A stretch of 64,000 bases of DNA from Halichondria panicea (Eukaryota > Porifera > Demospongiae > Suberitida > Halichondriidae): NCBI RefSeq assembly GCF_963675165.1, contig NC_087391.1, positions 4,514,646 to 4,578,645 on the forward strand, in the 5' to 3' direction. Shown one piece after another: positions 42,979 to 64,000 of this stretch (its first letter is position 1; every line of letters starts with the position of its first letter). Under the pieces are notes generated by a model. The model saw only the letters and a list, made by a program, of their open reading frames with translations. It was not told where the DNA came from and ran no database searches. Made by a program: the position numbers and the translations under genes.

Positions 42979-45900
42979 ATGGCTGAAGGGATTAGCAAAG
43001 AAGTGAAGATCAAGGCAGCCTCAGAGGCCCTAACCAGCCAACTGGATAATCTCTTTGGAGTAATAGACCCCTTGTCTATATCTATGAAATTGATTTCCAA
43101 AAAGATCACTGATCGATCGATTCTTGAGAAGGTCAGATTGCAAAGTTCCACTAAGAGTGAGAAGGCGTGTGATGTTCTAACTGCTGTCTCTGATGCTGTG
43201 ATGGTTAACCCAAACTACTTTGACACTTTTTGCGATATCCTCGATAGTGAGCTAGTAACTAAAGATGTTGCAAGGATTCTGAAAGGTAGGTGTAAACAGT
43301 TTGATCAAGTTTCTGGCCTTATGTGATTCATTGACTAGCTCATAATACTGTGTTTCTTTAATATCCAGAGAATTATCAAGCGAACCTTCAGCAAATCCAC
43401 AGAGCTCAGCAAATTCCAAGTAAGTGCCCAATCTGGTGTTTGTCACACCAGCATTAAATTGTCTCTCTCTTTAGCATGCACATGTAATGTGCTACAAAAG
43501 TCATCCTTGAATGACCTTAAAAAATTGCTAGACGCTTTGAAAATATACAGCGGTGCCGATAAGAAGAAGATGGAACAAAAGGGTCTTACAGAATACGTGA
43601 CCTGCTTCATTCAAGCTGACTGCTCTTCCACTGACCATTTGGAGGAGCATCTCCTGGCTCTACACGAACAAGATAGCTTGATTACTGATGTCTCCGTATA
43701 CCATTGGGTGAAACAACTGGCCACACAAAAATTTACTGAAAGTGTGGCCATACCAACAAGTCCTCTTAAAGTTGCTCCTGTTACAAAATCATGTCTGTTT
43801 TCAAAGCCTGTTGTGTATCATGCCAGTATTTGCTCACTAGCAGTCAACAAAACTGATGCCGGGGAGTACCAAAAGTTCTTCAAAGACAAGCGGTTTGTTC
43901 CTGGGCACTCGCTTAAAGAAGTCTCCATCTCTCGGTCAAAACAGGATCGGTATCTCATAGCAACTCAAGACGACTCCACCTACTACATTGCCTTTCAGAG
44001 TGAGCCAAACATCACAGAATGGCCCAAGAGATTCACATCTTTTGAAAATGGTTGGTTATTTACCACAATGCTCAAAAAGATACATGTACTTATTACCTGT
44101 AGGAGTCAAAATGCAGTCAGAGAATTTTCCAATTGACTTCATCACAGAACTTCTCAACAATGACACAAAGAGAGTTGTTCTTACAGGTACCTTTGTTTTG
44201 TGCACGACTATAATGTTGTAATTCTAAAGTTAAGGTTTATTTTCATTTTCAGGTTTTTCTTTTGGTGGAATGCTGGCTTGTTCAATAGCCGTTCAAGTGT
44301 GGCAGCGAGGGTACATACCAGCTCAGCTGCTACAAGAGAACCTCGTATGTATCACATTTGCTCAGCCCCACCTCCCAGTGCCCCAACTAGCAGACTTAGC
44401 GAGAGACCGTCCTGAGATTGCTAACACAATCCATGCCATCTACTTTGAGGAGGACATAGTTCCTCGCCTTCTGAGGGTTTTTGACCTACCATGTAGCACT
44501 CTGATTGAAGAGCGAGTAACAAGAGAACCTGGCCTTCAGATGAAAGTTAGAGAACTACCCAAAGCTGTAAGTATGCTGTTCTGCTGTGTAATCAATGATT
44601 TAATTTCTATACATAATATATGTAGCAGGCTTTTCAAGACCTTTTAACACAGAAGCTTCTCTCAGACATAGGGCAGCTATTATTTGAAAGCTTGGAAGTA
44701 AGCAATGAATCGGATTGCAGCAAAAAGTATGATATGCCTTTTGTACTATTAGGTGTCCTCCTCATTTTCTGAACTTGTGGAATTCCTAAAGAGGATATTG
44801 GAAGGGTTGTCTCAAAACGCTGGACTAAGCCAATCGTTGACCTACTACCAGCTCTCGTACTCCACCGATCAGTCCTCCTGTCTTCAGTTCAGTGAGATGA
44901 CAAAAGATCAATCAGCCATTCAATCCTCACATCTCAAGATTGGTGAATTAGTTCATCTCACGCCTGAAGTCTTTAAAAAGGTTTGCTCTTTACTTATAGA
45001 GTTATACCGGTTAAGTACACACTTCTGTATACATGCAGCATTCCATGAATACGTACTGTGAGAAGCTCTTTCGAGGCTACTTGGACAAAACTCCTGGTTA
45101 CAGAATCCAACCCCAAGGAAAGGCCCCATCTTCTCTCAACATGAGACCGACTGTAAGTGGTGTCACTATTCACGAACACGGCTCAGAAGTTGCTTTGGTG
45201 GTGGAAGGTACCAACTTTTGGTTCTGCCATCGTCTGTCCATCAGAGGAGAGAGTGTTGTAACTCCAGCCTCTAAAATCTCTGGTACGTCAATGAAGCTCA
45301 ATTTTGACAAAGAAACCAAGACGACACTGAGTGCACTTTCTGACAACGAAGAAGTCAGTCTCAAAGTGTTCAATCACTTCATGAAGTCTCCAGTTGCTGT
45401 AAATGTGAAGGTCGTGAAGAAAGTAAGTTGGTTGTTGAAGTACTAGTGTGTATGGTGATGTTTTCATTAGGAATACCCGGTCAGCACAAGACAGCGACAG
45501 CTAGCTCGGCTCACTCCCTCTCAGCTGATCGAGGTGACCTACCTTAGTGCTCTGCTTGAGAAGCATCCCTACATCTCTGGCCCCCAACCTCAGTCACACA
45601 AGGTGACCGTTATCAAGGCATTTCTTGACAAGGTAGTGAATGTTGTGCCTTTGGAAAGTATTGGATACGCAATTGCATATGGAAACGATCATGTTGCGCT
45701 GCAATGTGTCAATGTGGTGGATGCTTTATTTGATGATTTACCTTCTTCCTATTTAATGGATGATGGTTTTGATAAAGCAACAGGCAGAGTTGGTAGCGGT
45801 ATGTCAGTTGAAATTGATAATGAACTGGTTAAGCAAGTTATTCGTCCGATTATTGACAGTATTGATATCAAGAATGATAACTATTCAGTTACTCATGACT

Positions 45901-48035
45901 TTAATAAAGAAGATAGGACACTCACAATTACAGTTTATTCTTCAGAGGAAACATTAACTCACCACACATACTCACTCGATGAGCTCGAAAAGAAATATAA
46001 GATAGCACCCAACATCGGTTTATCACAGCTAACTTATTTGAAAAATTTAGGTTCTCTACACAGTAAACTATTTCACAAGCAAAGATCAGGCATAGTCAGC
46101 AGTGTCATATGTGGATTAAATATAAGCTCACTATACGGTGCATCAAAAACGAAACTCAAGTCACCTATTGAAACGCTGCGACTAGGAAAGGAAAAACTTG
46201 CTTCCCCATCCTCAGACAAATTGGCATCTTCTGTGTCTTCTTCTGTTACTTCTGACATGAACTTAGAATGCCTGGATAACTCTCTCATGCTGAAAACTGT
46301 GAACGATATTCGTCAAGAAGAGCTAGCGATATGTACGTCACTGCTTGCGGGATTCATGGAACAACATCAAATTGACATTCCATTAATGAAATCAGAGAAA
46401 GATCACTCAAAAGCATTACAACTTTCTGCCAGAGCAAGTGTGGGTGTGTGGGCGTTATCAAGTCTTGATTTTGAGCATATTCAGCCGATTCTCAAGCAAT
46501 GCCGTGGTGAACAACTGCTTGTCAAGATTGAGAAGTATATCAAGGGTATTGTTGAAGCCAAAGCAATGTCACCTACTCCAGACGACACCAAATATGCTGC
46601 CAAACTTCAGTTCATTGTTCAAGGAGCAGAGAAAACAGTAACCTGCAACAGCCAATACATCAGCTACTCCCTCGAGCGACAACTTGCTGACACTTGTTGT
46701 GAAAGGAGAATCACTGAAGATATTCCCTTGGAAAAACTACTTTCACTGTGGGACCAACTTTTTGAGAAAAACATTCTCTCCCTTGTGGCCAAATCTCATC
46801 GCCCGCTGATTGCTCGCTGGCTGAAGTGGGCTTTGATGGTCCACAACCTTCGTGAGGAGCTGGCCAAGTACACAGCCGTGGGGGTGGTGGGACTCGTGAA
46901 CTCAGGGAAGTCACGACTCATCACCACACTCTTTGGAATACAGGTATTACATCAATCAGGTAGTAGCTAGATCTACATGCATACTAGTCACTCAGTCGGA
47001 CATTGACTTCTGTATTTTGTACTTCTAGTTTACCTAGATGAGTGCTTAGATTCCGAATGCTCAAAGCACATAGAGATTTCAGGTCATTTCAGTGACACTG
47101 ATGATTGTTTGCCTGTTTAGATTCCCTCTGGCACTACTGAGGAGAATAGGACGACCGTTCCATTTATGTACAACCTTGAAGACAGAGTGGATGGTCTGGA
47201 CGTGGTGGACTTCCCTGGGGTGGACGACAGAGACGAGAGCATCTCTGGACTGGCTGACCTCCTCCTCACTCTGGCACAGATCATCATCTTTGTGGTGGAC
47301 TACAGGTACATATGTATTACAGCTTTTGTAAATAATTTTATGTGCACACTATATTTAGTTTAAAAATCAGTAAGCAGTGAAATTAATAGTCCCATGCATG
47401 AATCATTATTATAATTGTCCACTGCAAATTGTCGTTGATCTTGTTTGTTAATTATGCAGGAAAGTCCACACTGAGTCCAGTAAGAAGTGGTTGGATAGAC
47501 TGCAGGTTGAGAAAGTTCCTGTGCTGGTGTGTCTTACCTTTGCAGACAAGCTCTATGCTGAGCACATGAGAGACGGCAAACACCTTACTGATGAAAGCAA
47601 GTACCCTGACAAGATATCTACTAAGCACAAGCTTCAAGCTGAGCTGGCTGTAAGTTATGACGATACTGCACACTTGTAATTCTTGAAATTATAATGCAAT
47701 GGTTGAACTGAATTTGCTCCTAGCCACTGGATATTACCATCTAATTCTTTACGACCATCTTTACGTGCAATAAACTCTGTTATTAGCGTGGCCTATAATT
47801 ATTGCAGAGAATCAAAGAGAAACTGGAACTCTCATCCTCTCATCAAATCGAGTTCTGCTCATTCAGTCAGGACAAGGATTCTATTCTGAATTGCGAGGAG
47901 GGTCGCCAAAGACTGAGGGACGTGGGAATCAGCACCCCCTCTGAGGTGGGGGATTGGCTGGTGGACACCTTTAGGAAGAGATTTGGACAAGACGATCTGG
48001 CAGACAGGCTCAGAGATTTTGTACATTCTAGTTAG
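42979..48035 (+). CDS. Gene A: death-fold-like / class 3 lipase-like / dynamin-like GTPase protein
   Basis: Family not recognised. Twelve exons (42979-43285, 43369-43419, 43475-44050, 44103-44186, 44253-44566, 44629-44697, 44753-44980, 45039-45422, 45471-46943, 47121-47305, 47460-47649, 47808-48035) join in frame to 1,362 residues. The start is the ATG of MAEGISKE, conserved in all four copies. Residues 1-102 are an all-helical CARD/death-fold-like block (KACDVLTAVSDAV...FCDIL). Residues ~200-545 match a class 3 lipase: GFSFGG with Ser342, EEDIVPRLL with Asp407, and His544 in HSMNTYC as a candidate triad. Residues ~579-640 resemble an IPT/TIG fold (VVEGTNFWF). A helical region follows, with a diverged part at ~767-875. 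The GTPase has GLVNSGKS (1145-1152), PSGTTEENRTTVPF, DFPG (1192-1195) and TFAD (1250-1253) where TKxD is usual. No signal peptide or membrane segment is seen. A lipid-acting immune effector or regulator is possible but is inference. Confidence 0.88.
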
Positions 48036-48105
48036 TTTCTAGTTAGTTGCATCGAATTCATTAGTGTGAGTCTTTTTATGTTTTGGTTAGCTACAATTGT
48101 ATTCT

Positions 48106-48167
48106 TAGTCTCATGAATCAGCCGCACCTTTGGTGGACACCAAAGGTGCGGCTGATTCATGAGACTA
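48106..48167. repeat. Perfect palindrome, two 30-bp arms with a 2-nt spacer
   Basis: The arm 48106-48135 (starts TAGTCTCATGAATCAGCCGC) is exactly complementary to 48138-48167, with only GA between. It lies between the gene A stop and the gene B start (48266). It could be a miniature foldback transposon, or a hairpin in the gene A transcript or the gene B 5' region. Confidence 0.95.
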
Positions 48168-48265
48168 TTGCATTCAGCTTAGTTGTTTGATAAACAAAAT
48201 TAATGACCTTTACCTACAATTTTGTGATTCTGTGGGTGTGTCCATGTTGTATTGACTTTGTAAAC

Positions 48266-51200
48266 ATGGCTGAAGGGATAAGCAAGGAACTGAAGATCAA
48301 GGCAGCCTCAGAGGCACTAACCAGCCAACTGTTTGACCTCACAGGGGTAATTGACCCCTTAATGATGGCTCTCAATTTGATTTCCAAAAAGATTATTGAT
48401 CGATCGATTCTCGAGAGAGTTAGACTGTTGAGTTCCACGAAGAGTGAGAAAGCGTGCGATGTCCTAACTGCTGTCTCTGATGCTGTAATGATTAATCCAG
48501 ACTGCTTTGCCACTTTTTGCGATATCCTCGACAATGAGCCAGTAACTAAAGATATTGCAAGGATTCTGAAAGGTAAACACAACCGCTAAGTTCCTTCTGT
48601 GATCATGATATTAGAAACCTATAATGCAGCTAACCATGCGTCATCTTTTTTTAGAAAACTATGAACAGGAACTTCATACAGCTCAACAAAGTTTATGTGA
48701 GTTCTCATTGTGTCATTTGTTAGCTACCATTTATTAATCTTGACTCTCTCTCTCTCTCTTTAGCATGCACATGTACTGTCCTAAAAAAGTCATTCTTGAA
48801 CAAGCTGAAGAATTTGCTGTACGGTTTGAAAGGGTACAGCTATGCTGAGAAGAAAAAGACGGAACAACATGCTCTTACAGAATACGTGACCTGCTTCATT
48901 CAAGCTGGCTGCTCTTCCACTGACCATTTGGACAAGCATCTCTTGGCTCTACACGAACAAGATAACCTGATTACCGATGTTTCCTTATATCATTGGGCAA
49001 AGCAACTGGCCACAAAAAAATTTACTGAAATTGCCACTCTACCAATGAATCCGATTAAGATTTCTTCTGTTACAAAAGTACCTCTTTTCTCAAAGCCTGT
49101 TGTGTATCATGCTAGTATTTGCTCACTAGCAGTCAACAAGACTGATGCTGGGGAATACCAAAAGTTCTTCAAAGACAAGCGATTTGTTCCTGGTCACTCG
49201 TTTAAAGAAGTGTCTATCTCTCGATCAAAACAGGAGCGGTATCTCATAGCAACACAAGACGACTCTACCTACTACATTGCTTTTCAGAGTGAGCCAAACA
49301 TCACAGAATGGCCCAAGAGGTTCATGTCCTTTGAAAATGGTAAGTTTATATTTATATCGCAATGGTATAGATTACGTATCACTGTCCTCTTATAGGGATT
49401 AACATTCAAGCGGAAAGCTTTCCAATTGACTTCATCACAGAGCTTCTCAACAATGACACAAACCGAGTTGTTCTCACAGGTATTATTTTGTTTGTGTATA
49501 TAATATATGTGGGTTACTATTCATTTCAGGTTTTTCCTTTGGTGGGATGCTTGCTTGTTCGATAGCTGTTAAAGTGTGGCAGCGAGGGTACATACCAGCT
49601 CAGCTACTTCAAGAGAACCTCGTGTGTATCACATTTGCCCAGCCCCACCTCCCAGTGCCCCAACTAGCAGACCTGGCGAGAGACCGTCCTGAGATTGTTA
49701 ACACAATCCATGCCATCTACTTTGAAGAGGACATAGTTTCTCGCCTTCTGAGGGTTCTTGACCTACCATGTAGCACTCTGATTGAAGATCAAGAACCTGG
49801 CCTTCAAATGAAAGTTAGAGAACTGCCTAAATCTGTAAGTGCATGTATACTGTTTATTGAATGCACATGAGGATTTACATAATTAACAGGCTTTTCAAGA
49901 CCCTTTGACACAAAAGCTTCTCTCAGACATAGGACAGCTCTCGTTTGAAAGCTTGGAAGTAAGCAATGAATCTCACTGCAGCAAAAAGTATGATATGCCT
50001 ATTTTACTATTAGGTGCCCTCATTTTCTGAGTTCGTGGAATTCCTAAGGAAGATATTGGAAGGGTTGTCTCGAAACACTGGACTAAGCCAATCATTTACC
50101 TACTACCAGCTCTCCTACTCCACCGACCAGTCCTCTTGTCTTCAGTTCAGTGAGATGACAAAAGATCAATCAGCCATTCAATCTTCACATCTCAAAACTG
50201 ATGAATTGCTACGTCTCACACCAAAGGTCTTTAAAAAGGTGTGTTCTTAATTTACAGAGTTTGAGCCTATAATTATTTACCCTGTGCGTGTGCAGCGGGG
50301 GTAGAGTGAGATCAGTGTGTGTGTCGGTTTGTGTGTGGGCACAGACATGAGTTGTTTAGAGCAAACTAGACACTTTCATGGACTGCTTTAAATCTTCAAA
50401 GCTAACAAAAAACACTGTTTTTAATCGTTGTTTTATAGATTTTCGCGATTCACCCCATTATATTAATTACGGTACAAAATTATCGTATCCGTTTTGCCGC
50501 TGTGCAATGAAGCTGAACGCATGCATCTTGTTAAATCTGTACAGCATTCCATGGTAACTTATTGTGAGAAACTTTTCCGTGGCTACTTGGACAAAACTCC
50601 GGAGTACAGAATTCCCTCCGAAGGAAAGGCTCCAGTTTCTCTCAACATGAGACCGACTGTAAGTGGTGTCACTATTCACGAACACGGCTCAGAAGTTGCT
50701 TTGGTAGTGGAAGGTACCAACTTTTGGTTCTGCTATCGTTTGTCCATCAGAGGAGAGAGTATTGCAACTCCAGCTTCTAAAATCTCTGGTACGTCAATCA
50801 AGCTCAATTTTGACAAAGAAAGCAAGCCGACATTGAGTGCTCTTTCTGACAATGAAGAAGTCATTCTTAAAATGTTCAATCACTTCATGAAGTCTCCAGT
50901 TACTGTGAATGAAAAGGTCGTAAAAAAAGTATGTTGGTTGTTAAATTACTAGTGTGATGAGATTTAAAACCGTTTTCTGTTTTCAGGAATACCCAGTCAG
51001 CACAAGACAGCGACAGCTAGCACGGCTCACTCCCTCTCAGCTGATCGAGGTGACCTACCTTAGTGCTCTGCTTGAGAAGCATCCCTACACTGGCCCCCAA
51101 CCTCAGTCACACAAGGTGACCATTATCAAGGCATTTCTTGACAAGGTAGTGAATGTTGTGCCTTTGGAAAGCATGGGATATGCAATTGCACACGGAAATG

Positions 51201-53475
51201 ATCATGTCGCACTGCAATGTGTCAATGTGTTGGATGCTTTAGTTGATGATTTGCCTTCCTCCTATTTAATGGATGATGGTTTTGATAAAGCAACAAAGAG
51301 AGTTCGTAGCGGTGTTCCTGTTGAAATTGTTAGTAAACTGATTGAGCAAGTTATAGACAGAAGCCTTTTACAAAGTCGGTTGTTGTATGGCATACAATTT
51401 TCCTTGAACAAGGAAGAAAAGACACTGACGTATACAATTCATTTACCTGACAAGAAAATCTTAACTCGGACATACTCCTTCGATGAGCTCAAAGATAAGT
51501 ATAAGGTATCACCCAACATCGATTTACTACAGCTATCTGGTGTGAAAAACATAAATTGGCTACAACATAAATTATTTGACAAAGTTCATAAGTCAAGCAC
51601 AGTCAAAAGTGTCATATGTGGATTGAATATTAGCTCACTGTACGGTGTATCGAATGAACAACTCAAGTCACCCATTGAAACCCTCCATATTGGGAAGGAA
51701 AAGCTTGCTTCCACATCAGGATTTACCTCAGACAAATTAACATCCTCTGTCTCGTTAGTAAATTCTGCCATGAAGTTAGATTGTCTTGATAACTCTCTCA
51801 TGTTGAAAACTGTGAACGATATTCGTCACCAAGAGCTAGCGATATGTACTTCACTTCTTGCTGGATTCATGGAGCAACACGAAATTAACATTCCATTAAT
51901 GAAATCAGAGAAAGATCACTCGAAGGTTTTGGAACTTTCAGCTAGAGCAAGCGTGGGTGTGTGGGCATTATCAAGTCTTGACTTTGAGCATATTCAGCCG
52001 ATTCTCAAGCAATGCCGTGGTGAACAACTGCTCGTCAAGATCGAAGACTATATCAAGGGTATTATTGTTGAAGCCAAAGCAATGTCACCTTCTCCAGATG
52101 ATACCCAATATGCTGCCAAGCTTCAGTTCATCGTGCAAGGAGCAGAGAAAACAGTAACCTGCAACAGTCAATACATCAGCTACTCCCTCGAGCGACAACT
52201 TGCCGACATTTGTAGTGAAAGGAAAATCACTGAAGAAATACCCTTGGAAAAATTAGTTTTACAGTGGGAACAACTTTTTGAGAAGAACATTCTCTCCCTC
52301 GTGGCCAAATCTCATCGCCCGCTGATTGCTCGCTGGCTGAAGTGGGCTCTGATTGTCCACAACCTTCGTGAGGAGCTGGCCAAGTACACAGCCGTGGGGG
52401 TGGTGGGACTCGTAAACTCAGGGAAGTCACGACTCATCACCACACTCTTTGGGATACAGGTAGGTTACCGTGCACCTATTTTTATGTTCCTCATCAGTTG
52501 AGTCAGACATGCATGTGTGCAAAGTTTATGTCCTTTAAAAGTTGTACTGATGATCGTTTCTCTATTTAGATTCCCTCTGGCACTACTGAGGATAATAGGA
52601 CGACTGTTCCATTCATGTATAACCTTGAGGATAAAGTGGATGGTCTGGACGTAGTGGACTTCCCTGGGGTGGACGACAGAGACGAGAGCATCTCTGGACT
52701 GGCTGACCTCCTCCTCACTCTGGCACAGATCATTATCTTTGTGGTGGACTACAGGTACAGTCTTTCAGATGTATTATCCTTTGTATATAATTATGTGCTA
52801 GTTTTGAATCCAAAGCAGTAGATCAAAGCCAGGAAAGGTTATTGTTAATTACTGCGAATTATTCTTGTTATATCTGCAGGAAAGTCCACACTGAGTCCAG
52901 TAAGAAGTGGTTGGATAGACTGCAGGTTGAGAAAGTGCCTGTGCTGGTGTGTCTCACCTTTGCAGACAAGCTCTATGCTGAGCAAATGAAAGATGGTGAA
53001 CACCTTACTGATGAAAGCAAGTACCCTGACAAGATATCCACTAAGCACAAGCTTCAAGCTGAGCTGGCTGTGAGTTATGCACGATACTGCACACTTGTGG
53101 TTCTCTTAAATCATTAAAATCTACCATAGTCCGTTCCTATTGTTGTGATCAGCTAGTTCCCAAGACGCTTTATGTGCATTAGAAATTGAAATTGAATGCC
53201 ATATTTTTTAGCATAATTATTTTAACTGGGGGCTGTAATTATTGCAGAGAATCAAAGAGAAGCTGGAACTCCCATCCTCTCACCAAATTGAGTTCTGCTC
53301 ATTCAGTCAGGACAAAGATTCTATTCTGAATTGCAAGGAAGGTCGCCAGAGACTGAGGGATGTGGGAATCAGCACCCCCTCTGAGGTGGGCGATTGGCTA
53401 GTGGACACTTTCAAGAAGAGGTTTGGACAAGACGATCTGGCAGACAGGCTCAAAGATTTTGTACATTCTAGTTAG
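48266..53475 (+). CDS. Gene B: second death-fold-like / lipase-like / GTPase paralogue
   Basis: Same 12-exon plan as gene A: 48266-48572, 48655-48696, 48764-49339, 49396-49479, 49530-49834, 49890-49958, 50014-50238, 50545-50928, 50987-52459, 52570-52754, 52880-53069, 53248-53475. It is open throughout, 1,355 residues. Exon 2 is 42 nt, not 51, and encodes a different linker (ENYEQELHTAQQS). Exon 5 lacks three codons after the lipase Asp region. GFSFGG, EEDIVSRLL, HSMVTYC, GLVNSGKS, DFPG and TFAD are all kept. The central part of exon 9 (about 51273-51590) is strongly diverged from A and C, while the flanking regions are near identical. Intron 7 is about 250 bp longer than in A, suggesting an insertion. 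Downstream lie a decayed calcineurin B copy and a TRMT5 fragment. It is the only complete copy with a B-type linker. Confidence 0.88.
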
Positions 53476-53837
53476 TACAGAGAGCAACTTTAACATTAAC
53501 TGTGTGTGTGTGTGTTGTTATAATTAACATTATTGTACATTCAATGTATTGTGTGGTAATAAGTTTATGGTCTGTTTGAATATGCTCTATAAATTTAATA
53601 CTGAGTCTGAGTATCCTATGATGTACTTTACCTACCTAGATAATTATATATTTTGACAGTAGGTTGTGTAGGCCTATATACTGGTAGAAGAAAATTACAC
53701 GAAGAATACATACAAAATACATGTATGTTTCATTCCACACAAATTATTGATATATTTTATATGGTGGGAAATGCACATTATAAAAACTGTGACTATATCT
53801 AACAATCGAGGTGAACATGATATATAGTTTATGTTCG
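53476..53837. other. Gene B 3' flank, convergent with calcineurin B copy 1
   Basis: AT-rich sequence with a TG run after the gene B stop. It is nearly repeated after gene C (61117-61466), beginning TACAGAGAGCAACTTTAACA, which shows that the two units share a duplicated 3' end. Confidence 0.6.
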
Positions 53838-55411
53838 TCAGTCGCTGCCTTGCTTGAAATCCAGTACCATTTTAGACGGGCCATCCATCGTGCCCACAAC
53901 CTGCAGAGGACACAAAGGCAACAGTGAGCAATGCTAGAGTAATACACTAGGCACCAACCAAATATCTCTCCGCATATAAACGGCATCACAAAATAATAAA
54001 TGCAGCGAGAAACATTTCTATAAACCACATTTCCCCTTTGAATTTGATAAGGGAACCATACAAACATCTAGGAAGACTCAAAGACCCACATGTACATGTA
54101 CATGTATTCACTGAGTAACTCACATCACAGAATTCCTCGTATGAAATCTTGCCATCGCCATCTTTGTCGGAGTAGAGGATGGTCTTATCGACTATTTCTT
54201 GGAGTTGCTTCTCTGTTAAGTTGTTTCCTACCATCGTTTTTAGCACTTAGAACAGTTCACCGTTGCTGATGAACCCGTCCTGGTCAATGTCGTAGATACG
54301 GAAAGCAACTATAAAAAGAGAAGCAGAAACCACTGACACAATAGTTACTAAAATGAGGCTCAAAATACTAACTCAATATACAACTGAACCCTAGCTGGTA
54401 TAGGAACTGAACCCTAGCTGGTATAGGAACTGAACCTAACGTAGGTTTTCCACGTGGTCTAAAGGTACATGTATACGGAACAATCCACAGACCTTGCTGG
54501 GTCCCCTAACAGTGGTAATAAAGAGTGAATTGTCTTATAAATTATTTAGCTAAGGTGCAATGGATTCTATAACATGCGTGTTTACACCACCTAACATAGA
54601 GAAAAAGTGATGGGCTTACACTTGAGCTTCTTGTCCCTGTCTCCCTCCACACTGAACTGTGAGACACCCTCTATGAACTCTGCACAAGGAGGGAAACACA
54701 CAAATACTGAAACTGTATCCTGCTATACATGTGTACATACATGCACTGCTGGCTTTTACATGAAGTATTCGTAAGACTCCATAAGGTTTTTCCCCTATTA
54801 TTAGGGTATTGTGATCACTCATGAATATTCATGAGTTTAATTCTGTCAGCTTTTTCTCTTTTGCAGGTTCAAAGAAGTCTGCTGTACTTATATTGTATGA
54901 TTATTAACTCTATTGCTATTGTTTTGTGTAAGAATGCCATGATTATGAAGATGCATGAATGAGAAAAGTGGGCATCAAAACCGCAAGTATATAGACTATT
55001 TTTTGCGTCAATTTATAAGAGCAGTAAGTACTTTCAGCAAGCTTTATTGGTATCTATATGTAGCTAAGTACCTTCCAGAGGGCCAGACGAAGAGATATTC
55101 GTTGTAAAACTTCATACGGGCGAGTAAAAGCTAAGAGTAGACAGTAAGTATCTAAAAACACGTTTGATATTTCGATAAACAGGAGGCTACCTTCAACCAG
55201 ATTGACTTTTTTCAAAATTTCTCTTCGTCTGGCCCTGCCCCTACCTTTCTTTAATCTCAACTGGTCGATTTGGTCGGTACTAACCACCTCTACACAAAAT
55301 ACCTGAGTAACTCTAATAGGCCTAGTTTACCACATTATTAGGATTGAAAATAGCGACAGTTCCTATAATTTATTGCCTATGTGCAATTACTTTACTCACC
55401 TCTGTACTCAT
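53838..55411 (-). pseudogene. PPP3R1: Calcineurin subunit B-like copy 1 (truncated, nonsense codon)
   Basis: Calcineurin B is the Ca2+-binding EF-hand regulatory subunit of the phosphatase calcineurin. Recognisable pieces on the minus strand are MSTE (55411-55400), VVSTDQIDQL (ending near 55256), EFIEGVSQFSVEGD (54679-54620), [20 protein letters not shown] (starting at 54308), the EF-hand [13 protein letters not shown] (ending at 54124) and the C-terminus GPSKMVLDFKQGSD (53900-53838). EF-hands 1 and 2 are missing. Codon 54249-54247 is TAA where copy 2 has CAA (Gln), so EF3 ends prematurely. A block of about 465 bp not found in copy 2 interrupts it at 54790-55255. It is most likely a dead passenger in the tandem unit; the functional gene must be elsewhere. 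Confidence 0.85.
54790..55255. mobile_element. Insertion specific to calcineurin B copy 1
   Basis: Copy 2 reads directly from ATAAGGTTT to CTCAACTGGTCG (about 62357-62385) with a few intervening bases. Copy 1 carries about 465 extra bases at that point. Inside them 55079-55095 and 55220-55236 are a perfect 17-bp inverted pair (AGGGCCAGACGAAGAGA). It is probably a transposon remnant. A deletion in copy 2 is the alternative, but the extra bases show no calcineurin B coding sequence. Confidence 0.6.
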
Positions 55412-55563
55412 TACTATAGCATGTACATCATCATTCCGCTCAGACACCTGGCTCAACTGCACTGTGTGTGTGTGTGCGTGTTGACATTATTTGTCAAATG
55501 ATTTGACAAGTTTTTTAGTTTCAGTTTTGTGCACACACTAATCCTTGTGGTGTATGTATCAGT

Positions 55564-55751
55564 CAGTGGTTGTATTAAACACACAATAGAATAGAGCAAG
55601 TGGCAAGTACAATATTAAATCAGACCCCCACGTACCTCCTCCCACCATCACTGCACGGACACAGAACGAACGTCTTCATTATTTTGTTATGCTAACGACT
55701 TTCCTGAAGAGCTTAAGGATAACATAAGAGAGGTGTGAGAGGAACTTGAAG
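55564..55751 (-). pseudogene. TRMT5: TRMT5 fragment (part of intron 1 and exon 1), copy 1
   Basis: GTTATGCTAACGACT, AAGAGAGGTGTGAGAGGAAC and other stretches match TRMT5 exon 1 at about 40129-40190. The preceding ACACAATAGAATAGAGCAAG and AATATTA match TRMT5 intron 1 at about 39680-39710. Intron sequence is present, so the copy arose at DNA level, not from mRNA. It is too short and decayed to be functional. Confidence 0.8.
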
Positions 55752-55858
55752 CATCACCATAGGCGCTAGACGTAGACAATAGCTATGTGATCATGATCAC
55801 ACACCCATTTACACATACACACCTCTAGCTGAGTTATTACACTTTCTGGATTGCAGAG

Positions 55859-55893
55859 AAACAAAGGTGTGGCTCGTTTTTGGGGGCGTGCCT
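55859..55893 (+). promoter_or_regulatory. Conserved upstream block of gene C
   Basis: ACAAAGGTGTGGCTCGTTT followed by GGGCGTGCCTGG, matching the block before gene A at nearly the same distance from the ATG (about 61 bp). Confidence 0.4.
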
Positions 55894-55919
55894 GGTTTCT
55901 GCCTGTGGCAAACAACACA

Positions 55920-58900
55920 ATGGCTGAAGGAATAAGTAAAGAAGTGAAGATCAAGGCAGCCTCCAAGGCTCTAACTAGACAACTGGTTAATCTCATTGGG
56001 GTAATGGACCCCTTCATGATGGCTGCCAACTTGTTCTCTGAAGAGATTATTGATCAATCAATTCTCGAGAAGGTCAGATTGCCAGGCACTAAAAGTGAGA
56101 AGGCTTTTGATGTCTTCACTGCTGTCTCTGGTGCTGTAAGAATTAACCCAGACTCCTTTACTACTTTTTGCAATATTCTCGACAATGAGCCAGTAACTAA
56201 AGATATTGCGAAGAATCTGAAAGGTAGGAAAGAGTTTGATCGATCGCTTATTATCATTTAGGCTTCTTGCTACTCATAATATATTATAGCTGATAATACT
56301 GTGTCTCTCTTTAATATTCAGATAGCTATCAAGCGAACATTCTGGAAATCCACAGAGCTCAACAAATTCCTAGTAAGTTCCGAATAAGGTATCACTTTAA
56401 TGTCATCTCTCTCTTTAGCTTGCACATGTACTCTGTTACAAAAGTCATTCTTGGAAAAACTGAAAAAACTGCTCGATGGTTTGAAATTTTACAGCGGTGC
56501 CGATACGAAGAAGATGGAACAAAAGGGCCTCACAGAATACGTGACCTGCTTCATTCAAGCTGGCTGCTCTTCCACTGACCATTTGGACGAGCATCTCTTG
56601 GCTCTACACGAACAAGATAACCTGATTACTGATATTACCGTATATCATTGGGCAAAGCAACTGGCCTCAGAAAAATTCACTGAAATCGTTGCCATACCAA
56701 CAAGTCCAATTAAAGTTGCTCCTGTTACAAAATCACGTCTTTTTTCAAAGCCTGTTGTGTATCATGCCAGTATTTGCTCACTAGCAGTCAACAAGACTGA
56801 TGCTGGAGAGTACTAAAAGTTTTTCAAAGACAAGCGGTTTGTTCCTGGCCACTCGTTTAAAGAAATCTCCATCTCTTGGTCAAAACAGGATCGGTATCTC
56901 ATAGCAACACAAGATGACTCTACCTACTACATTGCCTTTCAGAGTGAACCTAACCTCACAGAATGGCCCAAGAGATTTGCATCCTTTGAACATGGTAAAT
57001 ATATTTACAACATTGCCAATAGTTACTTAATGTTTTACCTATAGGAATCAGCATTCAAGCTGATAACTTTCCTATTGACTTCATCACAGAGCTTCTCAAC
57101 AATGACACAAAAAGAGTTGTTCTTACAGGTACTACTAAACTACAATGTTGTGATTTTAAAGGTTCCTTTCAGGTTTTTCCTTTGGTGGGATGCTGGCTTG
57201 TTCAATAGCCGTTCAAGTGTGGCAGCGAGGGTACATACCAGCTCAGCTGCTTCAAGAAAACCTCGTGTGTATCACATTTGCCCAGCCACACCTCCCAGTG
57301 CCCCAACTAGCAGACCTGGCAAGAGACCGTCCTGAGATTACAAACACAATCCATGCCATCCACTTTGAAAAGGACATAGTTCCTCGCCTTCTGAAGGTTC
57401 TTGATCTACCATGTAGCACTTTGATTGAAGAGCGAGTAATAAAAGAACCTGGCCTTCAGATGAAAGTTAAAGAACTTCCCAAACCTGTAAGTCTGCTTTG
57501 TGTGTGTGTGTGTGTGTGTGTCAGCAACAATTTTTACTGCACAGGCTTTTCAAGACTTGTTGACGCAGAAGCTTCTTTCAGATGTAGGGCAACTCTCCTT
57601 TGAAAATGTCGAAGTGAGTTGTGAATATCATTGCAGCAAATATAATGAATATACTGTGCCGATAGGTACAATCTTCTTTCTCTGAACTTATGGAATTTCT
57701 AAGAAAGCTATTGGAACGGTTGTCTCAAAACGCTGGACTAAGCCAATCATTGACCTACTACCAGCTCTCCTACTCCACCGACCAGTCCTCCTGTCTTCAG
57801 TTCAGTGAGATGACAAAAGATCAATCAGCCATTCAATCCTCACATCTCAAAACTGAAGAATTGCTTCGTCTTACACCAGACGTCTTTAGAAAGGTTTGTT
57901 CATTGTGTACACTGTCCGTTTAAAATAATCCTGTACAGCATTCAATGGAGACCTATTGTGAGAAGCTTTTCCGTGGTTACTTGGATAAATCTCCTGAGTA
58001 CAGAGTTCTACCCACAGGAAAGGCTCCAGCTTCTCTCAACATGAGACCGACTGTAAGTGGTGTCACTATTCACGAACACGGCTCAGAAGTTGCTTTGGTG
58101 GTGGAAGGTACTAATTTTTGGTTCTGCCATCATCTGTCTATCAGCGGAGTGAGTATTGCAACTCCAGCTTCTCAAATTTCTGGCTCATCAATCAAACTCA
58201 ATTTTGACAAGGAAATCAAACCGACCTTGAGTGCTCTTTCTGACAATGAAGAAGTCAGTCTCAAAGTGTTCAATCACTTTATGAAGTCTCCAGTTACTGT
58301 AAATGTGAAGATCATTAAAAAAGTAAGTTGGTTATTGAAGCACTGTCAGTATAGAGTTTAATAATTTTCTTTAGGAATACCCGGTCAGCACAAGACAGCG
58401 ACAGCTAGCACGGCTCACTCCCTCTCAGCTGATCGAGGTGACCTACCTCAGTGCTCTGCTTGAGAAGCATCCCTACATCTCTGGCCCTCAACCTCAGTCA
58501 CACAAGGTGACCGTTATCAAGGATTTTCTCGACAAGGTAGTGAATGTTGTGCCTTTGGAAAGTGTGGGATATGCAATGGCACATGGAAATGACCATGTTG
58601 CGCTGCAATGTTTGAATGTGGTGGATGCCTTATTTGATGATTTGCCTTCTTCCTATTTAATGAATGATGGTTTTATTAAAGCAGCAAGAAGAGTTGGTAG
58701 CGGTATGTCAGTTGAAATTTATAATGAACTGATTGATCCGATTGTTGAAGGATATGATTCACAGAATGATAAATATTATGTTGAATATGCCTATAATAAA
58801 GAAGATAGGACACTTACAATTACAGCTGATTTTTCAGAGGAAATATTAACTCACACATACTCACTCGATGAGCTCGAAAAGAAATATAAGATAGTACCCA

Positions 58901-61116
58901 ACATAGGTTTATCACAGCTAACTTATTTGAAAAATTTAGGTTCTCTACAAAGTAAACTATTTGTAAAAATGCGAAGGTCAGGCATAGTCAGCAGTGTCAT
59001 ATGTGGATTAAATATTAGTTCACTGTACGGTGCATCAAAAAAGAAACTGAAGTCACCCATTGAAACGCTGCGACTAGGAAAGGAAAAACTTGCTTCCCCA
59101 TCCTCAGACAAATTGGCATCTTCTGTCTCTTCTTCTGTTACAGTAACTTCTGCCATGAACTTAGAATGTTTTGATAACTCTCTTATGCTGAAAACTGTGA
59201 ATGATATTCGTCAAGAAGAGCTAGCGATATGTACTTCACTGCTTGCTGGATTTATGGAACAACATGAAATTGACATTCCATTGATGAAATCAGAGAAAGA
59301 TCACTCGAAAGCATTGGAACTTTCAGCTAGAGCAAGTGTGGGTGTGTGGGCGTTATCAAGTCTTGATTTTGAGCATATTCAGCCGATTCTCAAGCAATGT
59401 CGTGGTGAACAGCTGCTCGTCAAGATCGAGGACTATATCAAAGGTATTGTTGAAGCCAAAGCAATGTCCCCTTCTCCAAACGACACCCAATATGCTGCCA
59501 AGCTTCAGTTCATTGTTCAAGGAGCAGAGAAAACAGTAACCTGCAACAGCCAGTACATCAGCTACTCCCTCGAACGACAACTTGCTGATATTTGTAGGGA
59601 AAGAAAAATCACTGAAGAAATTCCCTTGGAAAAATTACTTTCACTGTGGGAACAATTTTTCAAGAAGAACATTCTCTCCCTCGTGGCCAAATCTCATCGC
59701 CCGCTGATTGCTCGCTGGCTGAAGTGGGCTCTGATGGTTCACAACCTTCGTGAGGAGCTGGCCAAGTACACAGCCGTGGGGGTGGTAGGACTCGTAAACT
59801 CAGGGAAGTCACGACTCATCACCACACTCTTTGGAATACAGGTATGTTAACACTTTTAATTATGTGCTATGACTGTGGTTTTACTTCCATAGCTTTACTT
59901 GTCGTCGTTAGTCAGCCATAATTGTTTACATGTGTATTTTTCTGTTTCTATTTCGCTGATGATTGTTTCGATATACCTGTTTAGATTCCCTCTGGCACTA
60001 CTGAGGAGAATCGGACGACTGTTCCATTCATGTACAACCTTGAGGACAAGGTGGATGGTCTGGATGTGGTGGACTTCCCTGGGGTGGACGACAGAGACGA
60101 GAGCATCTCTGGACTGGCTGATCTCCTCCTCACTCTGGCACAGATCATCATCTTTGTGGTGGACTACAGGTACGTACCTACCGTAGTCTATAAAGGCGCC
60201 ACAAAAATTTTTGGGCGCACAAATAGAGCAGAAAAAAGTTTGGATGGCACTTCATTTAGAGTGACGGCCGAATTGAATTGGCAGATACAGCTTTAATTTT
60301 AGAGCCTAGACTGTTTAGTTAGCGCTAAAATTAGAGTGGCGCCTTTATTAGACTTTTTACAGTATAGTCATTTATAAACTTGTGCACACGCTTTAATTTG
60401 TGGTTTAAATCCATAGATCAAAGTAATTATTTGTCCCCAATGACCTTAGTGATTGTAGAGTGTATTTTACAGCAGTTGATTTTGGTCTGTCGTATTTATC
60501 TATATAATCATATCTACAGGAAAGTCCACACTGAGTCCAGTAAGAAGTGGTTGGATAGACTGCAGGTTGAGAAAGTGCCTGTGTTGGTGTGTCTCACCTT
60601 TGCAGATAAGCTCTATGCTGAACACATGAAAGATGGCGAATATCTTACTGATGAAAGCAAGTACCCTGACAAGATATCCACTAAGCACAAGCTTCAAGCA
60701 GAGCTGGCTGTGAGTTATGCAGCATACTGCACACTTGTGGTTCTCTTAAACTACCATAATCCGTTCCTATTGTTGTGATCAGCTTGTTCCCACTGGAAGA
60801 CGCCTTATGTGCATTAGAAATTGAAATTGAATGCCATATTTTTAGCATATTTGTTTTCGTTTGTAACTGTGACCTGTAATTACTGCAGAGAATCAAAGAG
60901 AAACTGGAACTCCCATCCTCTCACCAAATTGAGTTCTGCTCGTTCAGTCAGGACAAAGATTCTATTCTGAATTGCAAGGAGGGTCGCCAGAGACTGAGGG
61001 ACGTAGGAATCAGCACCCCCTCTGAGGTGGGCGATTGGCTGGTGGACACTTTCAAGAAGAGGTTTGGACAAGACGATCTGGCAGACAGGCTCAGAGATTT
61101 TGTACATTCTAGTTAG
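55920..61116 (+). pseudogene. Gene C: third paralogue, with a nonsense codon in exon 3
   Basis: Twelve exons as in A and B: 55920-56223, 56322-56372, 56419-56994, 57045-57128, 57173-57486, 57545-57613, 57666-57893, 57939-58322, 58375-59841, 59985-60169, 60520-60709, 60889-61116. All splice sites and all other exons are intact, which would give 1,359 residues. However, codon 251 (56814-56816) is TAA where A and B have CAA (GEYQKFF). Translation would stop after the death-fold-like and linker parts, before the lipase core. A conserved Arg in SISRSKQ is also Trp. The rest is well kept (GFSFGG, HSMETYC, GLVNSGKS, DFPG), so the lesion is recent, polymorphic, or bypassed by splicing. The 5' half and exon 9 variable region resemble A; intron 11 and the 3' flank resemble B. 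Intron 10 carries a MITE. Confidence 0.85.
60179..60365. mobile_element. Foldback element in intron 10 of gene C
   Basis: The left end TACCGTAGTCTATAAAGGCG is inverted at the right (GGCGCCTTTATTAGACTTTT, then TACAGTA). Genes A and B lack it in the same intron, so it inserted after the copies split. It begins 10 bp after the exon 10 donor. Confidence 0.8.
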
Positions 61117-61466
61117 TACAGAGAGCAACTTTAACATTAACTGTGTGTGTGCATGTTTTGTTATTGTACATTCAATGTATTGTGTGGTAATAAGTTTATA
61201 GGTAAACAAAATTAATGTACTCTATAAATTACTGAGTTAGTGAGTATCCTATGATGTACTTTACCTATACCTAGATAATTATATATTTAGACAGTATAGG
61301 TTGTGTAGGTCTATACTGGTAGAAGAAAATTGCATAAAGTTACATGAAGAAATACATACAAAATACATGTATGTTTCATATATTTTATATGGTGGGAAAT
61401 GCACATTATAAAAACTGTGACTAATATCTAACAATCGAGGTGAACGTGAAATATAGTTTATGTTCG
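61117..61466. other. Gene C 3' flank
   Basis: Near copy of the gene B 3' flank (53476-53837) with small indels. It contains no gene. Confidence 0.6.
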
Positions 61467-62658
61467 TCAGTCGCTGCCTTGCTTGAAATCCAGTACCATT
61501 TTAGACGGGACATCCATCGTGCCCACAATCTGCAGAGGATACAAAGGCAACAGTGAGCAATGCTAGAAAATTATATTTAATATACTATATATATATAGGC
61601 ACCAACCAAAAATATAATATCTCTCCGCATATAAACGGCATCACAAAATAATAGTACATGCACGAGAAACATTTCTATAAACCATACAAACATCTACATT
61701 GATTAACAGGAAGACTCAAAGACCTACATGTATAGAATGTATTCACTGAGTAACTCACATCACAGAATTCCTCGTATGAAATTTTACCATCGCCGTCTTT
61801 GTCGGAGTAGAGGATGGTCTTATCAACTATTTCTTGGAGTTGCTTCTCTGTTAAGTTGTTTCCTACCATCGTCTTTAGCACTTGGAACAGTTCACCATTG
61901 CTGATGAACCCGTCCTGGTCAATGTCGTAGATACGGAAAGCAACTGTAAGAGAGAAGCAGAAACCTCTGACACAATAGTTACTAAAATGAGGCTCAAAAT
62001 ACTAACTCAATATACAACTGAACCCTAGCTGGTATAGGAACCGAACCTAACGTAGGTTTTCCACGTGGCCTAAAGGTACATGTATATAGAATAAGTCCCC
62101 TAACAGTGGTAATAAAGTGTGAATTGTCTTATAATTATTTAACTAAGGTGCAATAGATTCTCTAACATGCGTGTTTACACCACCTAACACAGAGTAAGAG
62201 TGATGGACTTACACTTGAGCTTCTTGTCCCTGTCTCCCTCCACACTGAACTGTGAGACACCCTCTATGAACTCTGCACAAGGAGGGAAATACTGAAACTG
62301 ATGTGTACATACATGCACTGCTGGCTTTTACATGAAGTATTCACAAGACTCTATAAGGTTTCCTCTATTGTCAAGGAACTCAACTGGTCGATTTGGTCGG
62401 TACTAACCACCTCTAGACAAAATACATGAGCAACTCTTAGGCCTAGTTTACCACTAGTCTCGTGAGCAGACTTGACACACACTTGAAAAAAAACATTACA
62501 ATACTTGTACAGTGTTTCACCCAGGCTCCAAGTTCCCTCTAGGACAAGTCTGCTCGCGAGACTAGTTTACCACATACATGTATTCCAGGATTGAAAATAG
62601 CGACAGTTCCTATAATTTAATGCCTATATGCAAATACTGTACTCACCTCTGTACTCAT
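61467..62658 (-). pseudogene. PPP3R1: Calcineurin subunit B-like copy 2 (truncated)
   Basis: Same pieces as copy 1: MSTE (62658-62647), VVSTDQIDQL (from 62410), EFIEGVSQFSVEGD (62272-62213), the EF3-EF4 exon (61943-61759) and the C-terminus (61529-61467). Here the Gln codon after GELF is intact, so EF3 and EF4 are open. VVSTDQIDQL runs into SSLTIEE, as if EF-hand 1 had been deleted, and then reaches a stop. No EF-hand 2 loop is found between the exons. Canonical splice sites remain at the last three exons. A MITE has inserted between the first two pieces. It is probably a non-functional passenger, though a shortened EF3-EF4 protein cannot be excluded. Confidence 0.8.
62453..62566. mobile_element. 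MITE with about 22-bp inverted ends and a target-site duplication
   Basis: The left arm 62453-62474 (ACTAGTCTCGTGAGCAGACT then TG) is inverted at 62545-62566 with one mismatch. CTAGTTTACC occurs on both sides (62443-62452 and 62562-62571). Calcineurin B copy 1 has it once (55322-55331) with no insert, which is a clean empty site. The exact element end overlaps the duplicated bases. Confidence 0.88.
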
Positions 62659-62790
62659 TGCTATAGCATGTACATCATTATTCCGCTCAGACACCTGGCT
62701 CAACTGTGTGTGTGTGTGTGTGTGCGGCGTGGTGACATTTGACAGTTTCAGTTTTGTGTACACACTAATCCTTGTGGTGTCTGTATCAGT

Positions 62791-62993
62791 CAGTGGTTGT
62801 ATTAACACACAATAGAATAGAGCAAGTGGCAAGTACAATATTAAATCAGACCCCCACCTCCCACCGGCACCATCACCGGCACCGGACACAGAACAAACCT
62901 TTCCCTCTAACGTCATCATTTGTTATGCTAACGACTTTCTTGAAGAGAGGGTACTTAAGGATCACATAAGAGAGGTGTGAGAGGAACTTGGAG
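62791..62993 (-). pseudogene. TRMT5: TRMT5 fragment (part of intron 1 and exon 1), copy 2
   Basis: ACAAACCTTTCC, GTTATGCTAACGACT, GAGAGGGTACTT and GAGGTGTGAGAGGAACTTGG follow TRMT5 exon 1 in order. The AATATTAAATCAGACCCCCAC part corresponds to TRMT5 intron 1 on both sides of the MITE at 39708-40039, which is absent here. It is better preserved than the copy at 55564. Confidence 0.85.
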
Positions 62994-63111
62994 CTCCACC
63001 ATAGGCGCTAGGCATGCACAGTCAGTACTGGTGAAGAAACTTGACAAAAGGGGTCCAGATAGTCTCTCGGGCCATACTGGTAGATCTACTGCACATGCGC
63101 AAAGCGCAGTG

Positions 63112-63452
63112 TACCGTATAGCGGGTATATTTCGAGGGTATAAATGTTCGCGGTTTTCGCGGATTGAGCCTAAACCGCGAAAATTTATACCCACAAAAAT
63201 TTATATCTTTATTGAATAGTAGGCGTGTTCAGTATTATTGACCACACCTATCGACAATAAGAGGTACATGTACCTCACCGTTATAGGCTAGGCCTGGATT
63301 CGAGGCTAACGGTGTGGTGGTACAGCTGCATGTTGATGTGCGCATGCGCCAAAAGGCTGGGAACTCAGACCACAAAAATAAAATCCGCGAAATCCTTTGT
63401 AATGGTCCATCCGCGAAAATTTATACCCTCGAAATATACCCGCTATACGGTA
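63112..63452. mobile_element. MITE immediately upstream of gene D
   Basis: The termini TACCGTATAGCGGGTATATT and AATATACCCGCTATACGGTA are perfect inverted 20-mers, and the similarity continues inwards (GAGGGTATAAATGTTCGCGG). The element ends 34 bp before the gene D start codon, in the position where genes A and C have their conserved upstream block. Confidence 0.9.
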
Positions 63453-63486
63453 TGTTGGGGGCGTGGTGTTTTGCTGGAGTGAAGCA

Positions 63487-64000
63487 ATGGCTGAAGGAAT
63501 AAGCAAAGAAGTAAAGATCAAGGCAGCCTCGAAGGCTCTAACCAACCAACTGGTTAATCTCATTGGAGTAATTGATCCATTAATGATGGCAGCTAATTTG
63601 ATTTCTAAAGAGATCATTGATCGATCAATTCTTGAGAGAGTGATGTTGCCAATTTCCACTAAGAACGAGAAGGCGTGTGATGTCCTAACTGCTGTCTCTG
63701 ATGCTGTGATGATTAACCCAGACTATTTTGCCACTTTTTGCGATATCCTCGACAATGAGCCAGTAACTAAAGATATTGCAAAGATTCTGAAAGGTGGGCG
63801 CAAGCATTGTTTACATTAATTGTACGATTTCATAAAATGGCTTGTTTTGAGCTTGCGTTTGTTTATTCTTATATATCAGAAAAATATCAGGAAGAGCTTC
63901 GTGCAACTCAGAAAATTTCGTGTGAGTTGCCATTTTGTGTCTTTGACACTAATATAATGTTGACTTGACCCTCTCTTTAGCTTGCACATGTACTGTGCTA
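63487..64000 (+). CDS. Gene D: fourth paralogue, 5' part only
   Basis: Exon 1 (63487-63793) starts MAEGISKEVKIKAASKALT and encodes the death-fold-like block ending DIAKILKG. Exon 2 (63880-63921, 42 nt, EKYQEELRATQKIS) is of the gene B type. Exon 3 begins at 63981 (TCTV) and is cut by the window end. Exon 1 is closest to gene C by eye (AASKALT, QLVNLIGV, MMAANL), while exon 2 groups with B, another mosaic sign. It is open as far as it goes. Lipase and GTPase parts are expected beyond 64000. Confidence 0.85.

What the first reader, a model, noticed from the sequence alone, without database searches (positions are those of the whole stretch)
42979..64000. Tandem family combining a death-fold-like domain, a class 3 lipase-like domain and a dynamin-like GTPase
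Four paralogues encode the same order in about 1,360 residues: CARD/death-like helices, alpha/beta hydrolase, IPT/TIG-like domain, long helical region, GTPase. I know of no described animal family with this combination. Lipase-like proteins act in plant immunity (EDS1/PAD4/SAG101), and death folds and large GTPases act in animal immunity. A sponge-type cluster uniting all three would be a candidate innate-immune or membrane-remodelling system. The domain calls come from motifs, the function from analogy.
Basis: partly seen in the sequence, partly recalled or inferred. Interest (0 to 1): 0.95.

Follow-up and report, generated by a model that had tools for sequence, protein, structure and literature searches.

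The report
Tandem CARD-like, lipase and GTPase proteins
A eukaryotic genome carries a row of duplicated genes that each seem to fuse a helical assembly-type domain, a lipid-cutting enzyme domain and a GTP-powered switch; the layout resembles an internal defence protein, but neither the function nor the host species has been tested.

Summary
The window has three full-length tandem copies and the start of a fourth. Copies 1 and 2 splice into open frames of 1,362 and 1,353 residues (12 exons). Copy 3 has an in-frame stop at codon 251. Copy 4 is cut by the window end, so its domain order is unseen. A class 3 lipase and a P-loop GTPase pass Pfam's cut-offs in both intact proteins. "Dynamin-like" is not supported: the GTPase is C-terminal, scores below the Dynamin_N cut-off and is nearest to Era/Der/HydF-type GTPases. 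The N-terminal domain is CARD-like by profile comparison (0 of 300 shuffles), but not by Pfam or a confident fold. The IPT/TIG-like domain is only suggestive. A fast-evolving patch lies at residues 780-870 of otherwise constrained proteins. Best reading: an intracellular conflict-type protein with assembly domain, lipase effector, variable region and GTPase switch. It would work like fungal lipase-NLRs or bacterial GTPase conflict systems, without being a member of either or of the EDS1 family. No paper with this combination appeared in the listings of ten library searches.

The parts
42979..48035 (+). copy 1, 12 exons, 1,362 aa, intact: 42979-43285, 43369-43419, 43475-44050, 44103-44186, 44253-44566, 44629-44697, 44753-44980, 45039-45422, 45471-46943, 47121-47305, 47460-47649, 47808-48035 (stop included)
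   Evidence: hand model, frame and splice sites
48266..53475 (+). copy 2, 12 exons, 1,353 aa, intact
55920..61116 (+). copy 3, 12 exons in frame but TAA at codon 251 in exon 3: likely a pseudogene or a null allele, or an assembly error
63487..64000 (+). copy 4, exons 1-2 and first 20 bases of exon 3, cut by the window end
42979..43285 (+). copy 1 exon 1: CARD-like domain (aa 1-102)
   Evidence: profile comparison with CARDs, 0 of 300 shuffles; no Pfam CARD; fold model pLDDT 45
43475..45422 (+). copy 1 lipase region across exons 3-8 (about aa 227-574), candidate triad Ser342, Asp407, His544
   Evidence: Lipase_3 above cut-off; Ser and Asp regions aligned with PAD4; positions; His by recalled motif
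45039..45422 (+). copy 1 exon 8: beta-sandwich, IPT/TIG-like (aa 544-671)
   Evidence: suggestive only
45471..46943 (+). copy 1 exon 9: middle region (aa 672-1162) with a fast-evolving patch at about aa 780-870 and the P-loop at its end
46842..48035 (+). copy 1 GTPase region from about aa 1129 to the end (exons 9-12), G1 at 1145, G3 at 1192, G4-like TFAD at 1250
   Evidence: MMR_HSR1 above cut-off

Best explanation
A tandem gene family encodes intracellular proteins built as assembly domain (CARD-like), effector (class 3 lipase), beta-sandwich, variable sensor-like region and C-terminal GTPase switch. Most likely mechanism: the variable region around residues 780-870 senses a microbial or altered-self ligand; the Era/Der-like GTPase switches state; the CARD-like ends bring copies together; and the lipase, released or clustered at a membrane, hydrolyses lipids to signal or to kill the cell. 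Shown here: gene structure, lipase and GTPase homology, constraint on the copies, and the fast patch. Inferred: CARD-type assembly, lipase activity, sensing, and the immune role.
For: Lipase_3 29.5 and 25.8 bits against a cut-off of 22, MMR_HSR1 38.6 and 38.7 against 21.9. Candidate Ser/Asp/His in 3 of 3 copies. Exon 1 against a CARD profile: 0 of 300 column shuffles reach the score; reversed exon 1, exon 8, residues 120-210 and 8 slices of exon 9 score lower. dN/dS 0.23-0.26 overall, with an excess of non-synonymous changes at 780-870 (odds 3.7-6.1). Precedents: fungal NLRs with sesB-like lipase domains (PMC4986451, passages), bacterial GTPase-switch conflict systems (PMC7159879, passages), Death-like expansions with variable C-termini in Amphimedon (PMC8195603, section 10).
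Against: No expression, activity or structure data. Pfam and PDB searches find no CARD for exon 1; pairwise and single-sequence CARD comparisons are mixed. No known sensor repeats (no LRR, WD40, ankyrin or TPR reported). The G4 motif reads TFAD, not the usual NKxD/TKxD (recalled), so GTP binding may be altered. Two of the three pairs behind the fast patch include copy 3, which has a stop; relaxed constraint or local misalignment could give the same signal, and the patch limits were set after looking.
Confidence: 0.4

Rival explanations
1. Lipid-metabolism or membrane-remodelling enzyme: the GTPase regulates a lipase at an organelle membrane, with no defence role; the N-terminal helices only target or dimerise it.
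For: Lipase and GTPase homology; strong constraint on the GTPase region (96-98% identity between copies).
Against: Tandem copies with a fast-evolving patch and a broken copy are unusual for a housekeeping enzyme, though not excluded; CARD-like signal.
Confidence: 0.25
2. Non-catalytic signalling scaffold: the lipase fold binds a ligand or partner, as reported for plant EDS1-family proteins (recalled), and is not an enzyme.
For: Best solved-structure match of the lipase region is PAD4, not significant (E 0.57).
Against: Candidate Ser, Asp and His all retained in 3 of 3 copies; no EP domain reported.
Confidence: 0.2
3. The N-terminal helices are unrelated to death folds, and the protein is an ordinary uncharacterised lipase-GTPase fusion of unknown role, perhaps widespread in animals.
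For: HMMER finds no CARD for exon 1. Eukaryote protein databases could not be searched, so such relatives may be common.
Against: Profile comparison with CARDs, while reversed exon 1 and other segments of the protein score lower.
Confidence: 0.15

Closest known systems
Fungal NLRs with sesB-like lipase/esterase N-terminal domains (PMC4986451, passages)
   Same: A predicted lipase effector in the same chain as a P-loop NTPase switch.
   Different: There the switch is a NACHT or NB-ARC STAND domain with WD40, ankyrin or TPR repeats; here it is an Era/Der-like GTPase, no repeats were reported, and a CARD-like domain precedes the lipase.
Bacterial GTPase-centred conflict systems, DO-GTPase/GAP1 (PMC7159879, passages)
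   Same: A TRAFAC GTPase proposed as switch, with variable sensing parts and effectors.
   Different: Those are multi-gene operons; the word lipase does not occur in that text; sequence kinship with DO-GTPases was not tested.
Amphimedon Death-like/TRADD-N expansions (PMC8195603, section 10)
   Same: Death-like N-terminal domains with a variable, sometimes enzymatic, C-terminal part, in a sponge.
   Different: No lipase is named in that paper's text; no TRADD-N domain was reported in the two proteins scanned.
Plant EDS1/PAD4/SAG101
   Same: Class 3 lipase fold; PAD4 is the best of two solved-structure matches (not significant).
   Different: No EP domain reported; a GTPase and a CARD-like domain are added here.
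Dynamin superfamily, including GBP and VLIG/GVIN large GTPases
   Same: A P-loop GTPase in a large protein; weak URGCP_GTPase match (15.8 bits against 55).
   Different: GTPase at the C-terminal end, below the Dynamin_N cut-off, nearest to Era/Der/HydF.

Membership tests
Class 3 lipase (Pfam Lipase_3) | Profile score above the curated cut-off | tested here: met
   29.5 (copy 1) and 25.8 bits (copy 2) against 22
Class 3 lipase (Pfam Lipase_3) | Catalytic Ser, Asp, His | tested here: inconclusive
   Ser342 and the Asp407 region align with PAD4; His544 assigned by position and recalled motif; present in 3 of 3 copies; activity not tested
TRAFAC GTPase (MMR_HSR1, Era/Der type) | Profile score above the cut-off, with G1 and G3 motifs | tested here: met
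   38.6 and 38.7 bits against 21.9; G1 GLVNSGKS and G3 DFPG; NCBIfam Era, Der and HydF matches are below their own cut-offs
TRAFAC GTPase (MMR_HSR1, Era/Der type) | G4 motif NKxD/TKxD (recalled) | tested here: not met
   TFAD in 3 of 3 copies
Dynamin superfamily | Dynamin_N above cut-off, with a stalk after the GTPase (stalk order recalled) | tested here: not met
   25.7 and 25.2 bits against 27; the protein ends 112 residues after the G4 site of copy 1
CARD / death-fold superfamily | Pfam CARD or death match | tested here: not met
   Not reported for exon 1 of 4 of 4 copies nor for the 2 full proteins; filters drop weak matches, and a genuine APAF1 CARD finds other natural CARD families only at E 0.024 or worse in a PDB search
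CARD / death-fold superfamily | Six-helix death fold | tested here: inconclusive
   Six helices drawn at pLDDT 45; profile comparison beats 300 of 300 shuffles
IPT/TIG domain | Profile match and Ig-like sandwich | tested here: inconclusive
   No Pfam match in 2 of 2 exon 8 copies scanned; 1 of 300 shuffles reaches the hhalign score; 1 of 5 models at pLDDT 70
EDS1/PAD4/SAG101 | EP domain after the lipase-like domain | tested here: not met
   No EP model reported at E up to 10 (that Pfam holds one is recalled); EP as a defining domain is from the PMC12069366 abstract in the listing
NLR (NACHT/NB-ARC plus LRR) | STAND NTPase and LRR | tested here: not met
   Neither reported by Pfam at E up to 10

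The most novel reading that the evidence does not exclude
An undescribed class of animal intracellular immune receptor in which a GTPase, not a STAND ATPase, is the switch; the effector is a catalytic class 3 lipase in the same chain; and recognition lies in a short diversifying segment, so that lipase-based immunity arose or persisted in animals in parallel with plants and fungi.
Probability: 0.25. Interest if true: 0.85.

Novelty: new variant of a known kind. Interest (0 to 1): 0.6.

Why it matters
If the immune reading is right, one chain holds sensor, switch and lipid-hydrolysing effector. Even if it is not immune, a CARD-like/lipase/GTPase fusion kept under purifying selection is an enzyme-switch arrangement for which the searches here found no description.

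Tried and rejected
Dynamin label: rejected on the Pfam cut-off and domain order. EDS1 membership: rejected, no EP domain reported. Four intact paralogues: rejected. Separate gene halves: not supported by the sequence, because the frame runs through all 12 exons in copies 1 and 2 and all 33 introns modelled must be spliced; transcripts could still show otherwise.

Relatives in prokaryotes and viruses: two scans of genome contigs, with the GTPase and the lipase alignments, gave 24 and 35 pattern matches, none confirmed; one scan of viral contigs with residues 1-671 gave 3, none confirmed; plasmids gave 9 records with GTPase matches at E 0.02 or worse; PADLOC matched 0 of 5 pieces at E up to 1; PHROGs, GTPase part only, matched one unnamed family at E 3.2e-4. 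The contig scans start from short patterns and cannot exclude distant relatives; the phage and metagenome collections were not searched.

A second death-like domain in residues 120-210: no CARD signal and no likeness to exon 1. Pairwise scoring of exon 1 of 4 copies against 8 recalled CARDs was mixed: z from -0.9 to 4.7 over 32 pairs, the two highest with copy 3; 12 non-CARD pairs (PYD, DED, DD) reach up to 2.7. By hhalign against single CARDs, one of six (RAIDD) reaches E 0.005 and the other five 0.07-0.29; single DED, DD and PYD give 0.09, 0.25 and 0.34. The exon 1 model was not used for a fold search because its confidence is too low.
Full report
WHAT IS THERE. Self-comparison of the window shows a tandem array on the + strand. 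I modelled 12 exons by hand in copy 1 and transferred them to copies 2 and 3 by exon alignment, frame and splice sites. Copy 1 spans 42979-48035 and gives 1,362 residues; copy 2 spans 48266-53475 and gives 1,353. Copy 3 spans 55920-61116 and keeps the frame over 12 exons, but codon 251 is TAA where the other two have CAA. Copy 4 starts at 63487, and the window ends 20 bases into its third exon. So 'four paralogues with the same order' is, within the window, two intact genes, one with a stop, and one start.

IS IT REAL. Yes. All 33 introns are GT-AG, and each either shifts the frame or holds a stop, so the exons join only by splicing. Whole-protein dN is 0.065-0.084 and dS 0.28-0.32 in the three pairs, a ratio of 0.23-0.26. 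There is no transcript evidence.

THE LIPASE. Lipase_3 scores 29.5 bits (copy 1) and 25.8 (copy 2) against a cut-off of 22, and 27.9 for the excised region of copy 2. A profile search of solved structures gave two matches at E up to 10; the better is plant lipase-like PAD4 (8zf0, E 0.57). This is not significant, but it aligns the nucleophile motif and the Asp region. Ser342, Asp407 and His544 (copy 1 numbering) have counterparts in 3 of 3 copies. The His is my assignment by position and recalled motif.

THE GTPASE. MMR_HSR1 is matched over positions 2-111 of 113 at E 1.3e-9 and 1.2e-9, while Dynamin_N stays below its cut-off in both proteins, 25.7 and 25.2 against 27. NCBIfam lists HydF, small_GTP, Der and Era first, all below their own cut-offs, and the best PDB chains are Der/EngA (best E 0.0016). 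G1 and G3 motifs are present; G4 reads TFAD. The domain sits at the C-terminal end. I therefore call it Era/Der-like, not dynamin-like.

THE N-TERMINUS. Pfam reports no CARD or death family for exon 1 of four copies; the few weak matches are unrelated and below cut-off. A PDB profile search gives three matches, best E 0.59, none a CARD. As a yardstick, the APAF1 CARD finds other natural CARD families only at E 0.024 (RIG-I), 0.2 (CARD8) and 0.65 (NOD1), so silence means little. Profile against profile with six CARDs (five of them recalled and unchecked) gives score 22.8 and P 0.0013, aligned over residues 37-101, but an hhalign probability of only 18.5%. None of 300 column shuffles reaches it (largest 21.0); the reversed domain scores 11.5; exon 8, residues 120-210 and eight slices of exon 9 score 15.6 or less. 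Single-sequence comparisons are mixed. AlphaFold2 draws six helices at pLDDT 45, which decides nothing.

THE MIDDLE. Exon 8 gives a beta-sandwich in the best of five models (pLDDT 70; the other four 34-40). Foldseek finds no match at E 0.001 or better; the best E is 3.2e-3, most of the 50 rows shown are Ig-type chains, and the largest query TM-score shown is 0.41. A 20-column match to a small IPT profile is reached by 1 of 300 shuffles. IPT/TIG is possible but unproven. In exon 9, residues 780-870 differ far more than the rest: non-synonymous/synonymous differences are 66.5/20.5 (copies 1-2), 25.2/4.8 (1-3) and 63.8/20.2 (2-3), Fisher P 5e-8, 4e-5 and 6e-7 against the remainder. The densest 60-codon non-synonymous window exceeds all 2,000 permutations in each pair; for copies 1-3 that window is in exon 1, residues 22-82, not in the patch. 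The patch limits were chosen after a sliding-window look, copy 3 is broken, and relaxed constraint or local misalignment is not excluded; the 1-2 pair, both intact, shows the excess too.

HOW IT MAY WORK. The order assembly domain, effector, variable region, switch resembles conflict proteins. In fungal NLRs a lipase-type sesB domain is a presumed effector joined to an NTPase (PMC4986451, passages). In bacteria, TRAFAC GTPases are predicted switches of conflict systems (PMC7159879, passages). In the sponge Amphimedon, hundreds of proteins carry TRADD-N, mostly with Death-like domains and variable, sometimes enzymatic, C-termini (PMC8195603, section 10 and passages). I propose sensing in the variable patch, a GTPase switch, CARD-like clustering and lipid hydrolysis. 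Only homology, constraint and the fast patch are shown.

LITERATURE. Ten full-text searches listed no paper that I could recognise as describing this combination; Lipase_3 together with MMR_HSR1 gave 0 papers. Limits: only the top of long lists was shown (for example 8 of 3,727, 20 of 293), one search was blunt because 'card' matched 'cardiac', and subscription journals are mostly not held. I saw passages of five papers. In the Halichondria paper the word lipase does not occur and GTPase occurs 13 times; in the Dysidea paper neither lipase nor GTPase occurs, while CARD and Death genes are counted.

HOST. No genome is held for the window. Introns show a eukaryote; a forkhead gene and calcineurin B-like exons lie nearby.

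Noticed in passing
54121-54680 and 61756-62375, minus strand: Calcineurin B-like exons, about 75% identical to a recalled mammalian sequence in their best exon, after copies 2 and 3; they lie in spacer stretches that are themselves duplicated (52870-54789 with 60510-62361), so the repeated unit may include this gene.
   Followed up: partly
48106-48167: A perfect inverted repeat, two 30-nt arms with 2 nt between, in the spacer of copies 1 and 2; its 15-base core occurs nowhere else in the window at up to 2 mismatches.
   Followed up: partly
32611-34089, minus strand: Long open frame with a forkhead domain (E 7.7e-40).
   Followed up: no
36945-37751, minus strand: Exon-like frame with a TRM5/TYW2 methyltransferase domain (E 9.1e-29).
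   Followed up: no
7569-7966 and 18394-18997: Tandem repeats: 44-bp unit, 9 copies; 214-bp unit, 2.8 copies.
   Followed up: no
3' exons of the copies, e.g. 47121-48035: Synonymous divergence is lower over the GTPase region (0.16-0.21) than over the whole protein (0.28-0.32), which could mean gene conversion at the 3' ends.
   Followed up: no
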